From Amnibacterium kyonggiense (GTDB taxonomy: Bacteria > Actinomycetota > Actinomycetes > Actinomycetales > Microbacteriaceae): a stretch of 64,000 bases of DNA. The first letter of the stretch is position 1. Every line of letters starts with the position of its first letter. Positions 33,889 through 47,480 of the stretch are shown here, piece after piece. A program made the translations under genes and the position numbers. The notes under the pieces are model-generated. The model was not told where the DNA came from. It searched no databases and was given only the letters and a program-made list of their open reading frames with translations. The stretch lies in NCBI RefSeq assembly GCF_004364555.1, contig NZ_SOAM01000003.1, positions 186,001 through 250,000 of the forward strand, given 5' to 3'.

Positions 33889-34983
33889 TCATTCGGCGAG
33901 AGCGCGGAGGCGGGCGGCCTCGTCGGCCTCGATCGCCGAGCGGACGATCGGCTCGAGCGCGCCGTCGAGCACCCGGTCGAGGTCGTACGCCTTGTACCCG
34001 GTGCGGTGGTCGCTGATCCGGTTCTCCGGGTAGTTGTAGGTGCGGATGCGCTCCGAGCGGTCGACCGTGCGCACCTGGCTGCGGCGCGCGGCGGACGCCT
34101 CGGCCTCCGCCGCCTCCTGCTGCGCGGCGAGCAGGCGCGCGCGCAGGACGCGGAGGGCGGCCTCACGGTTCTGCAGCTGGCTCTTCTCGTTCTGCATCGA
34201 GACGACGATCCCGGTCGGCAGGTGGGTGATGCGCACCGCGGAGTCCGTCGTGTTGACGCTCTGGCCGCCCGGGCCGGAGGAGCGGAAGACGTCGATCTTC
34301 AGGTCGTTCGGGTCGATCGTCACCTCCTCGGGCTCGTCGACCTCCGGGAACACGAGCACGCCGACGGCCGAGGTGTGGATGCGGCCCTGCGTCTCCGTCT
34401 TCGGCACGCGCTGCACGCGGTGCACGCCGCCCTCGTACTTGAGGTGCGCCCACACGCCCTCGGCGGGGTCGTTCGACGACCCCTTCACGGCGACCTGGAC
34501 GTCCTTGTAGCCGCCGAGGTCGCTCTCGGTGCGCTCGAGCAGCTCCGTCCGCCAGCCCTTCGACTCGGCGTAGTGGAGGTACATGCGCAGGAGGTCCGCG
34601 GCGAAGAGCGCGGACTCCTCCCCGCCCTCCCCCGCCTTGATCTCGAGGATGACGTCGCGCCCGTCGTCGGGGTCGCGCGGGATCAGGAGGCCCTGCAGCC
34701 GGTCGGCCGCGGCGGTCTCCGCGAGCTCGAGGTCCGGGATCTCCGCGGCGAACGCGGGGTCCTCCTGCGCCAGCTCCCGCGCGGCGGCCAGGTCGTCGCG
34801 GTACTGGCGGTAGGCGTCCCAGGCGCCGACGATCTGGCCGAGCTCGGCGTACCGGCGGCCGACGCGCCGGGCGCGGCCGGCGTCCGCGTGCAGCTCCGGG
34901 TCCGCGAGCTGCCGCTCGAGGTCCGCGTGCTCCGCGACGAGCGGGGCGACGGACGCGAAGCGGTCGTCCGTCTCCCCGGTCAC
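33889..34983 (-). CDS. prfA: peptide chain release factor 1
   Basis: Class I release factor (364 aa) reading UAA and UAG. The catalytic loop is [18 protein letters not shown] and the anticodon-like region includes [19 protein letters not shown]. Start GTG 34983 overlaps the rho stop (GTGA). The rpmE gene that mycobacteria carry between rho and prfA is missing here. Confidence 0.97.
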
Positions 34984-37169
34984 TTCGCGCTCGGCAGCGA
35001 CTTCTGCATCTGGACGAGGAACTCCACGTTGGTGCTCGTCTCGCGCAGCTTGCTCGTGACGACGTCGAGCGCCTCCTGCGGCGTGTGGTTCGCGATCGCG
35101 CGCCGCAGCTGCCAGGTGATCTTGACCTCGTCCGGCCCCATCAGCATCTCCTCGCGGCGGGTGCCGGAGCGGGTGATGTCGATGGCGGGGAAGATCCGCT
35201 TGTCGGCGAGGGCGCCGGACAGCACGATCTCCGAGTTCGCCGCGCCGACGAACTCGGCGAGGATCGCCTCATCGGCGGCCGAACCGGTCTCCACGTGCGC
35301 GGCGGCGAGGATCGTGAGCGAGCCGCCGTTCTCGATGTTGCGCGCGGCGCCGAAGAACTGCTTCGCGGGCAGCAGGGCCGCCGCGTCGATGCCGCCGGCG
35401 AGCGTGCGGCCGGACTGGTGCGCCGTCTGGTTGAAGGCGCGGCCGAGCCGCGTGATCGAGTCGAGCAGGATGACGACGTCGTAGCCGAGCTCGACGAGGC
35501 GCTTCGCGCGCTCGACGGCGAGATCCGCGACCGTGGTCTGGTCCTCGGCCGGGCGGTCGAACGTCGAGGCGATGACCTCGCCCTTCACGGTGCGCTGCAT
35601 CTCCGTGACGTCCTCGGGACGCTCGTCCACGAGCACCACCATGAGGTGGACCTCGGGGTTGTTCTTCGTGATCGCGTTCGCGACCGCCTGCAGCAGCAGC
35701 GTCGTGCCGGCGCGGGGCGGCGCGACGACGAGGCCGCGCTGGCCCTTGCCGATCGGGGCGACGAGGTCGATGACGCGGGCGGTGAGCTTGTTCGACTCGG
35801 TCTCGAGGCGGAGCCGCTCGGCCGGGTAGAGCGGCGTCAGCTGCTCGAACTCGAGGCGGCCCTCGGCGTCAGCGACCGGCAGGCCGTTGATCGAGTCGAC
35901 CTTGACGAGCGCGTTGTACTTCTGTCGGCTCGGCTGCTCGTTCTCGGGGATCTGGCGGATGGCGCCGACGACCGCGTCGCCGCGGCGCAGGTGGTACTTC
36001 TTCACCTGGCCGAGGGAGACGTAGACGTCGTTCGTGCCGGAGAGGTAGCCGGACGTGCGGACGAACGCGTAGTTGTCGAGCACGTCGAGGATGCCGGCGA
36101 TCGGGATGAGCACGTCGTCGTCGCGCACCTCCGGCTCGTCCCAGTCGTTGCCCTGTCCGCGTCGCTTGCGGTCGCGGTAGCGGCCACGACGGCCCTCGCC
36201 GTCCTGCTGACCCTGCTGGTTCTGGCCGTTCTGCTGACCCTGACCGTTCTGCTGGCCCTGGGCGCCCTGCTGCTCCTTGGCGGGCTGCTCCTGCTTGACC
36301 GGCTCGGCCTTCGCCGGCTCCTCGGCCTTCGGCTGCGCCTCGGTCTTCTGCGCGTCACCGTTCTGCTGCTGGCCGTTCTGACCGCCGCGGCCACGACCAC
36401 GCCCGCGACCCCGACGACCGCCGGTGCGCTCGCCCTCGGCGGGCTGCTCGTCGCCGCCCTCCTGGGCGCCCTCGCCCTGCTCGCCGCGCTGCAGCGCCTG
36501 CAGGTCCTCGGCGATGCCGGTCAGCCCGGCGTTCACGTGGTTCGCGGCCGACCGCGGTTGCGCCGTGCCGGAGCGCTCGGCGAGCTCGTCGGGGATCTCC
36601 GCGCCGCCCTCGGCCTCATCGACTCGGACGGTCTCGCTCGATCGCGCGGGCGCGTCCGTCGACGCCTCGGGGGCAGCGTCCACCGACTCGGCGGCGTCGG
36701 TCGACTCGGTGTGCGGCTCGACCGGCTCGACCTGGGCCACGCCGGACTCGTCGACCGGGGTCGGCTCGCCCGCGGCGACCGTCTCGGTCTGCTCGGCCGG
36801 GACCTCCGCGGCGGGCAGCGGCTGCTCGTCCGGCGTGCTCTGCTCGGGAGCGGCCTCGGCGCCGCCCTCGGCCGTGCCGGCGGGGACGTCGACCGCGTCC
36901 TCCGCCGGCGTCTCCGGCAGGACAGCGCCCTGCTGCTCGGTCTCCGCGCCGTCGGCGGGCGTCTGCGCCTCGTCCGTCCCGGTCGGGTTGTCGTACTGCT
37001 CGTCGATCGCGTCCACGAGGATGCCCTTTCGCATGGTGGAGGTGTTGCCGATGCCGAGGGTGCTCGCGAGCCGCCGCAGCTCGTCGACGCGCATGGCGTT
37101 CAGACGGCTTCGGGAGAGCCGCGGCACGGCGGTGCCCTCGGCTCGAGGTCGCGGTTCGACGTCGGTCAC
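34980..37169 (-). CDS. rho: transcription termination factor Rho with altered P-loop
   Basis: Hexameric RNA helicase homologue (729 aa). An N-terminal SAP-like segment ([20 protein letters not shown]) is followed by about 250 low-complexity acidic, then Arg/Gly/Gln/Asn-rich residues, as in other actinobacterial Rho proteins. The RNA-binding domain ([17 protein letters not shown]) and ATPase core follow. The P-loop reads [13 protein letters not shown]: Thr489 stands where Walker A Lys is expected and Arg replaces the preceding Lys. The Q-loop segment [12 protein letters not shown] lacks the usual Lys-Gly-Thr-Gly. The catalytic Glu ([14 protein letters not shown]), Walker B ([16 protein letters not shown]) and R-loop ([18 protein letters not shown]) are kept. 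It stands at the standard thrB-rho-prfA locus. Confidence 0.93.
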
Positions 37170-47408: not shown

Positions 47409-47480
47409 GCCCCCATAGCTCAGGGGATAGAGCACTGCCCTCCGGAGGCAGGGGCGCAAGTTCGAATCTTGCTGGGGGCG
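47409..47480 (+). tRNA. tRNA-Arg (anticodon CCG)
   Basis: A full cloverleaf can be written: acceptor GCCCCCA with TGGGGGC, D-arm GCTC/GAGC, anticodon stem CTGCC/GGCAG with loop CTCCGGA (anticodon CCG), T-arm GCAAG TTCGAAT CTTGC, discriminator G. CCA is not encoded. -10-like TAGCCT lies at 47389-47394. It reads CGG codons. A perfect terminator follows within 11 bases. Confidence 0.95.

What the first reader, a model, noticed from the sequence alone, without database searches (positions are those of the whole stretch)
34980..37169. Rho factor with Thr in place of the Walker A lysine and an altered Q-loop
Seen: the P-loop reads [12 protein letters not shown]; codon 35705-35703 is ACG (Thr489) where Rho proteins have Lys (PPKAGKT), and the preceding Lys is Arg. 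The Q-loop [12 protein letters not shown] lacks the Lys-Gly-Thr-Gly that contacts RNA. Known: these lysines are essential for ATP binding and RNA translocation in characterised Rho. Catalytic Glu, Walker B and the R-loop are intact and this is the canonical locus, with no sign of decay elsewhere. Inference: either a lineage-specific Rho that works without the classical lysine, a Rho that lost ATP-driven translocation, or a naturally drug-resistant variant.
Basis: partly seen in the sequence, partly recalled or inferred. Interest (0 to 1): 0.78.

Follow-up and report, generated by a model that had tools for sequence, protein, structure and literature searches.

The report
Rho factors that lost their motor
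In this actinobacterium, and separately in many of its relatives, the protein Rho, normally an ATP-driven motor that stops transcription, has lost key motor residues but has kept its RNA-binding half, which suggests that Rho can be useful to a cell without working as a motor.

Summary
In detail: the only rho found in this genome (window 34980-37169, minus strand; genus Amnibacterium) has Thr489 at the Walker A lysine (E. coli K184) and Arg at K181. The loop labels were wrong: FVGAAN replaces residues 335-340 (K336), and the true R-loop has also changed (K326 to Ala).

It is not a one-off. In a sample of 199 Microbacteriaceae genomes, 30 carry a Rho that I checked to be motor-eroded, in 13 of 85 genera, with no second Rho found. 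A tree of neighbouring genes needs 8 changes of state, 7 forced by strong branches. The pattern recurs in family f14 of the order (4 genomes) and family f45 of the class (11 of 24).

The split is sharp: of 180 inspected Rho that cover K336, 133 keep it (128 keep all 17 other motor positions scored where covered, 5 lose one); 47 lost it, and 46 of these lose at least three others. F64, R66 and Y80 of the RNA-binding domain are kept in 47 of 47. Motor dN/dS rises (median 0.03 to 0.14) but stays below 1.

Best reading: repeated, stepwise loss of RNA translocation and then ATPase, with Rho kept as an RNA-binding, perhaps RNA-polymerase-docking, factor. Function is inferred; no biochemistry was done.

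The parts
34980..37169 (-). rho gene, 729 codons, GTG start; downstream neighbour prfA, upstream homoserine/threonine genes
   Evidence: TIGR00767 555.2 bits (cut-off 509.45); prfA TIGR00019 at 33889-34983
37005..37091 (-). Rho_N (SAP-like) N-terminal module, residues 27-55
   Evidence: PF07498 25.6 bits (cut-off 24.9), residues 23-55
36126..36419 (-). Arg/Gly/Gln/Asn-rich extension ([13 protein letters not shown] ... [17 protein letters not shown]); M. tuberculosis Rho's counterpart binds RNA
   Evidence: PMC4167861 passages
35970..36095 (-). core of the RNA-binding domain (primary binding site), residues 359-400; key residues kept
   Evidence: PF07497 83 bits
35688..35723 (-). degenerate Walker [13 protein letters not shown], residues 483-494; K181 to Arg486, K184 to Thr489 (codon 35703-35705)
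35607..35630 (-). catalytic Glu motif VDERPEDV, intact
35439..35474 (-). Walker [13 protein letters not shown], intact
35385..35423 (-). Q-loop [13 protein letters not shown] (E. coli 278-290)
35265..35294 (-). R-loop region [11 protein letters not shown]. coli K326 is Ala631
35226..35255 (-).
35148..35168 (-). arginine-finger motif SGTRREE, intact

Best explanation
This is the ordinary, single rho gene of an Amnibacterium, at its usual place, but its product most likely no longer works as an ATP-driven RNA translocase. In this genus and in about seven other Microbacteriaceae lineages (six forced by well-supported branches) the motor was dismantled independently. Likely order (inferred from the least eroded forms): K336 and usually K326 go first, then Walker A, the catalytic Glu and the arginine finger, and in two lineages (g67, G023) the C-terminal end beyond about residue 345. 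The RNA-binding domain stays under ordinary constraint and most eroded proteins keep a long N-terminal low-complexity extension. The protein is therefore kept as an RNA-binding factor that binds nascent RNA and may still dock on the NusG/RNA polymerase elongation complex, acting without translocation (as a pause, roadblock or allosteric factor, or as an RNA scaffold). Shown: motif losses, retention of the RNA-binding residues, repeated origin, purifying selection, no second Rho found. Inferred: loss of ATPase and translocation, and the remaining function.
For: Genus: 6 of 7 genomes had a Rho (G005, 84% complete, none found); K184 is Thr in 3, Arg in 1, Lys in 2, and K336 is lost in 6 of 6. Tree of 57 genomes from eight neighbouring proteins: 8 changes of state, 7 forced by starred branches, 0 of 500 shuffles as low (same picture with 98 genomes). 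Of 186 inspected Rho, 180 cover K336: 133 keep it, and of these 128 lose none and 5 lose one of 17 other motor positions (fragments counted where covered); 47 lost it, of which 46 lose three or more others and one (G004) loses one. In those 47: K326 (K or R) kept in 10, K184 in 20, E211 in 28, R366 in 26, D265 in 46; F64, R66 and Y80 in 47. Of 226 sites invariant in 65 canonical Rho, RNA-binding-domain sites (39) are kept on average in 14.0 of 15 eroded groups, motor sites (173) in 9.0. Motor dN relative to prfA dN: median 2.03 in 14 eroded pairs, 0.20 in 12 canonical pairs (p 0.0002); RNA-binding domain not different (p 0.55); motor dN/dS median 0.14, maximum 0.48. The most eroded form modelled, ending near residue 345, is still predicted to fold (pLDDT 84.3) and its best solved match is Rho. 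Print: in the allosteric model open Rho engages the elongation complex by its NTDs and can inactivate RNA polymerase without its motor (PMC11718236, passages).
Against: No biochemistry exists here; a Thr or Arg at K184 does not by itself prove loss of ATP binding, and the window's Rho keeps E211, D265 and R366. Eroded genomes were first picked by low HMM score, so loss of motor residues is partly what was selected for; the sharp two-way split and the sparing of the RNA-binding half were not. F64 is not fixed in all canonical relatives: ten genomes of other families with a canonical motor have Tyr there, so its conservation in the eroded set is informative but not absolute. RNA polymerase docking is untested: NusG is found in 36 of 36 genomes, but its KOW domain also serves other partners (recalled). 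I found no genome-level footprint: intrinsic-terminator-like sites and base skews showed no clear difference.
Confidence: 0.63

Rival explanations
1. A working but altered Rho motor: other residues replace the lysines, so ATP hydrolysis and translocation continue by a modified mechanism.
For: In the window's Rho the catalytic Glu, Walker B and arginine finger are intact. M. tuberculosis Rho terminates efficiently in vitro with Thr at K326 (PMC8828861 passages and section 9); two canonical relatives here also have Thr there (G328, G688). Early-stage forms (G188, G006, G004, G056, G125, G673) keep all eight core ATPase residues scored, Ser being allowed at 185.
Against: Relatives with the same signature go on to lose the Glu, the arginine finger and the C-terminal end, as expected of a decaying and not a re-tuned motor; motor constraint is relaxed overall.
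Confidence: 0.2
2. Decaying gene: Rho is dispensable in these bacteria and the gene is on its way to being lost.
For: Motor dN/dS is up to 0.48; two lineages have lost the C-terminal end, and in G101 the family match runs across one TAG.
Against: Motor dN/dS is below 1 in all 14 eroded pairs (in one, G078-G191, dN is 0 in both domains at dS 0.40 and 0.55); F64, R66 and Y80 are kept in 47 of 47; erosion is shared across the sampled species of several genera.
Confidence: 0.1
3. Drug or toxin escape: substitutions around the ATP/bicyclomycin pocket were selected by a Rho inhibitor, and loss of motor activity is the price.
For: K184 moves when bicyclomycin binds and lies at its pocket (PMC8828861 section 9); K336 and G337 as pocket residues are recalled, from no call.
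Against: The change is far wider than a pocket change and includes loss of catalytic residues and truncation; the known actinobacterial case needs one residue and keeps the motor.
Confidence: 0.05
4. Sequencing or assembly artefact.
For: None found.
Against: Same residue in other genomes of the genus, two of them also seen as named records; consistent graded series across species.
Confidence: 0.01

Closest known systems
Canonical Rho of Actinobacteria (M. tuberculosis Rho, PDB 7oqh)
   Same: Domain order, N-terminal extension, fold; best solved match of the window protein by sequence and of the most eroded modelled relative by fold.
   Different: K184, K181 and K336 equivalents are lost here; M. 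tuberculosis Rho is said to keep the catalytic residues and terminates transcription in vitro (PMC8828861 passages and section 9).
E. coli Rho mutants Y274D, G324D (R-loop) and N340S
   Different: Those are single laboratory mutants in one species; here several changes are fixed across species and include the ATPase core.
Motor-independent (allosteric) action of Rho on RNA polymerase
   Same: Uses the NTDs, whose RNA-binding residues are kept here (PMC11718236 passages).
   Different: In E. coli the same protein also has the motor; here the motor seems to be gone.
[quoted passage not shown] 2024, gkae582)
   Same: Its abstract, as recalled, describes atypical Rho forms and variation in the bicyclomycin pocket.
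   Different: The paper is not held (its reference was seen), so whether it notes these motor losses could not be checked.

Membership tests
Transcription termination factor Rho (TIGR00767), as a protein family | full-length match over the curated cut-off | tested here: met
   555.2 bits against 509.45, positions 4-415 of 415; more eroded relatives fall below it
Transcription termination factor Rho (TIGR00767), as a protein family | Rho_N and Rho RNA-binding domains | tested here: met
   PF07498 and PF07497 over their cut-offs
Rho as an ATP-driven RNA translocase | Walker A lysine (K184) | tested here: not met
   Thr489
Rho as an ATP-driven RNA translocase | R-loop K326 and K336 | tested here: not met
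   Ala631 and Val641; K326 alone is not decisive, since canonical relatives can have Thr
Rho as an ATP-driven RNA translocase | catalytic Glu, Walker B Asp, arginine finger | tested here: met
   E211, D265, R366 equivalents present
Rho as an ATP-driven RNA translocase | RNA-dependent ATPase and helicase activity | not testable with these tools
   needs purified protein
Motor-independent Rho | primary RNA-binding residues F64, R66, Y80 | tested here: met
   kept in 47 of 47 eroded Rho
Motor-independent Rho | binding to NusG and RNA polymerase | not testable with these tools
   NusG present in 36 of 36 genomes but not diagnostic

The most novel reading that the evidence does not exclude
Rho has repeatedly evolved into a motor-free transcription factor: in at least three actinobacterial families natural Rho proteins have given up ATP-driven translocation and act on RNA or RNA polymerase through the RNA-binding half alone. 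This would be natural evidence that the motor-independent function of Rho is worth keeping by itself.
Probability: 0.45. Interest if true: 0.9.

Novelty: new variant of a known kind. Interest (0 to 1): 0.77.

Why it matters
Rho's catalytic residues are described as highly conserved among divergent Rho factors (PMC8828861, passage), and a tracking, motor-driven route and an allosteric, motor-free route to termination are both still argued for (PMC11718236, passage). A family in which motor residues were lost at least seven or eight times while the RNA-binding half was kept offers natural proteins, with canonical sister species as controls, on which the two routes can be told apart. It also warns that automatic annotation ('Rho') can hide loss of the motor: the window's protein passes the curated Rho cut-off.

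Tried and rejected
Intrinsic-terminator-like sites in 26 eroded and 64 canonical regions of at least 17 kb: 0.46 against 0.19 per region (block-shuffled 0.27 and 0.19), counts near chance and tracking G+C; matched G+C bins do not differ clearly. Purine content and skews of up to five neighbouring genes (31 eroded, 65 canonical): small differences, confounded by G+C. NusG KOW domain: the stretch could be printed for 13 of 19 eroded and 11 of 11 canonical genomes and looks alike; the six others did not match my pattern and were not followed up (a first pattern matched none of 30). A search for a Rho_N motif by pattern in the extensions was too crude to use (5 of 32 eroded, 8 of 65 canonical). 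The drug-escape, artefact and second-rho readings were considered and rejected as above. Number of origins in f45: prfA was usable in 10 of 24 genomes and the tree is unresolved (3 changes, 1 forced), so none is claimed. My first comparison of K336 (0 of 47 against 74 of 74) was partly circular, since 65 of the 74 had been chosen for the canonical profile; one search replaces it with all inspected Rho. An AU test of a single origin and a careful-mode tree of the Microbacteriaceae were not run; support rests on quick and FastTree values. Literature searches; no listed title or abstract start shows this pattern.

Full report
Observation. The window holds one rho gene at 34980-37169, minus strand, 729 codons, between threonine-pathway genes and prfA. 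The Walker A stretch reads [12 protein letters not shown]; codon 35705-35703 is ACG (Thr489) where E. coli Rho has K184, and Arg486 stands for K181. No other Rho was found in the genome: the next matches score 53.8 bits (a FliI-like ATPase by its sequence) and 38.2 bits (ATP synthase operon) against 554.8. FVGAAN is E. coli 335-340, with K336 to Val; it is not the Q-loop. The real R-loop has also changed, K326 to Ala631. PMC8828861 (passages and section 9) gives K326 as R-loop and K184 as Walker A.

The genus. A contig of G001 has the length of the A. setariae DD4a record (1,570,942) and their Rho hits score identically, so the genus is Amnibacterium. Of 7 genomes, 6 have a Rho; G005 (84% complete, 320 contigs) shows none. 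K184 is Thr in G000, G001, G002, Arg in G003, and Lys in G004 and G006, while K336 is lost in all six. This suggests that the loop changed before the Walker A lysine. A. flavum (L097) has a canonical Rho in the stretches shown.

The family. In a sample of 199 Microbacteriaceae genomes spread over 85 genera, 172 pass the Rho cut-off, most at E of 1e-184 or less, but a set scores far lower. I fetched the low ones (34 genomes) and 100 regions, most of them one per genus. By inspection 30 of 199 have an eroded motor: every sampled, readable species of 12 genera (in several only one species was sampled or readable) and G188 of a thirteenth. In 8 of 199 Rho is a fragment (G049, G067, G105, G150, G186; canonical where covered) or was not found (G043, G103, G160). 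The other 161 score in the canonical range; 88 of them were inspected, 87 canonical at all 18 motor positions and one (G066) with a single difference; 73 were judged by score alone. The eroded set ranges from loss of K336 with few other changes (G004, G006, G188), through loss of Walker A, catalytic Glu or arginine finger (g6, g15), to proteins that end near residue 345 (g67, G023). No eroded genome showed a second Rho; several are draft or incomplete.

How often. A tree from AtpA, AtpB, AtpD, AtpG, PrfA, PrmC, the threonylcarbamoyladenylate synthase and a WecA-like protein (98 genomes, FastTree; 57 genomes, IQ-TREE quick) needs 8 changes between canonical and eroded, 7 forced by strong branches; 0 of 500 label shuffles were as low. 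As the outgroups are canonical, these are most simply losses. Sister pairs include G188 (eroded) and G073 (canonical) in one genus, and g13 (eroded) beside g46 (canonical). The tree rests on genes linked to rho, not on whole genomes; G021 sits on a long branch; G004 and G002 are not in it.

Beyond the family. In an order-wide sample (396 genomes, 362 outside the family) 4 more eroded Rho were confirmed, all in f14: G288, G356, G469 and G449. Of the other low or middling scorers, 15 were inspected and have a canonical motor (G254, cut, and G328 with one difference each; G459 split between frames; G489, G498 and ten more); two fragments (G358, G366) are canonical where covered, and eight fragmented genomes gave no Rho. 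In a class-wide sample (296 genomes) f45 has 11 eroded and 13 canonical of 24, all inspected. Of 15 other low scorers there, 8 were inspected and are canonical where covered, apart from Thr at K326 in G688; 7 had no Rho or a fragment that I did not inspect. Genomes in the canonical score range were mostly not inspected one by one.

What is lost and kept. I looked at 186 Rho in all, low scorers being over-represented. Of the 180 that cover K336, 133 keep it, and 128 of these lose none and 5 lose one of 17 other motor positions (fragments counted where covered); 47 lost it, and 46 of these lose three or more others, one (G004) a single one. So Rho in this sample is either canonical or eroded, with almost nothing between. 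Within the 47 (32 Microbacteriaceae, 4 f14, 11 f45): K326 (K or R) kept in 10, K184 in 20, E211 in 28, R366 in 26, D265 in 46, and F64, R66, Y80 in 47. Of 226 sites invariant in 65 canonical Rho (three of them outgroup), the 39 of the RNA-binding domain are kept in 14.0 of 15 eroded groups on average, the 173 motor sites in 9.0. Seventeen motor sites are kept in all 15 groups, among them R221; an E. coli strain list pairs nusG-G146D with rho-R221C (PMC1950744, one passage), a hint, not a test, of NusG contact. A long N-terminal extension is present in most of 32 eroded proteins (median 300 residues of open frame before the domain, against 383 in 65 canonical); that of M. tuberculosis Rho binds RNA (PMC4167861 passages).

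Selection. Nei-Gojobori estimates for 14 eroded and 12 canonical pairs: motor dN/dS median 0.14 (0 to 0.48) against 0.03 (0.011 to 0.053). Motor dN relative to prfA dN is ten times higher in eroded pairs (median 2.03 against 0.20, p 0.0002; one pair per genus p 0.0001), while the RNA-binding domain shows no difference (p 0.55). Some pairs share a genome and some dS are high or saturated. Motor dN/dS stays below 1 in every pair, which argues against pseudogenes.

Structure. AlphaFold2 gives the most eroded protein modelled (G135, 292 residues) a confident fold (pLDDT 84.3, pTM 0.86), closest to M. tuberculosis Rho (TM 0.87 by query length). The window protein's model is fair (pLDDT 79.7, pTM 0.70). 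Both are monomer models and say nothing on ring formation.

Mechanism. I favour a motor-free Rho: it binds RNA with the extension and RNA-binding domain, and possibly engages the NusG/RNA polymerase complex, without translocation. PMC11718236 (passages) describes the allosteric model in which open Rho engages the elongation complex through its NTDs and can inactivate RNA polymerase without its motor. That the eroded proteins act in this way is inference. Rivals are a re-tuned motor, a decaying gene and inhibitor escape; none fits all results as well. Terminator and skew tests gave no support either way.

Novelty. Nine answered literature searches list no paper on motor loss in natural Rho, but the library lacks the 2024 survey of Rho diversity, whose abstract, as I recall it, mentions variation in the bicyclomycin pocket, and the 2013 survey of Rho conservation was not read. 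The claim of novelty is therefore provisional.

Noticed in passing
L084 (JABBOB010000066.1): A record titled 'Acidobacteria bacterium isolate G2_29' matches a genome of the window's genus (G002 has a contig of the same length, 13,593, and an equal Rho score), so the MAG label looks wrong.
   Followed up: partly
L118 (G011, genus g6): The N-terminal extension of Rho carries repeated RRRGRPRKNP stretches that look like AT-hooks (recalled motif), suggesting DNA rather than RNA contacts.
   Followed up: no
L179, L180, L181 (g67) and L134 (G023): Two separate lineages have Rho proteins that end at nearly the same place, shortly after the R-loop, losing the arginine finger and the C-terminal helices.
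   Followed up: partly
The species name is not confirmed.
   Followed up: partly
L101 (G489); L286-L289, L291-L293 (f3); L283 (G328): A contrasting pattern in other families: canonical motor positions (G328 has Thr at K326) but altered primary RNA-binding residues, Asn or Gln at F62 and Tyr at F64, and Ser at Y80 in G489.
   Followed up: partly
L107 and L109 (G459): rho is split between two overlapping frames, RNA-binding half and motor half, with a canonical motor; an error or a frame-shift.
   Followed up: no
L097 (Amnibacterium flavum): Carries a canonical-looking Rho, unlike the genus of the window, which suggests that Amnibacterium as named may not be one group.
   Followed up: no
window 47409-47480: A tRNA gene, the only Rfam match over threshold in the window.
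   Followed up: no
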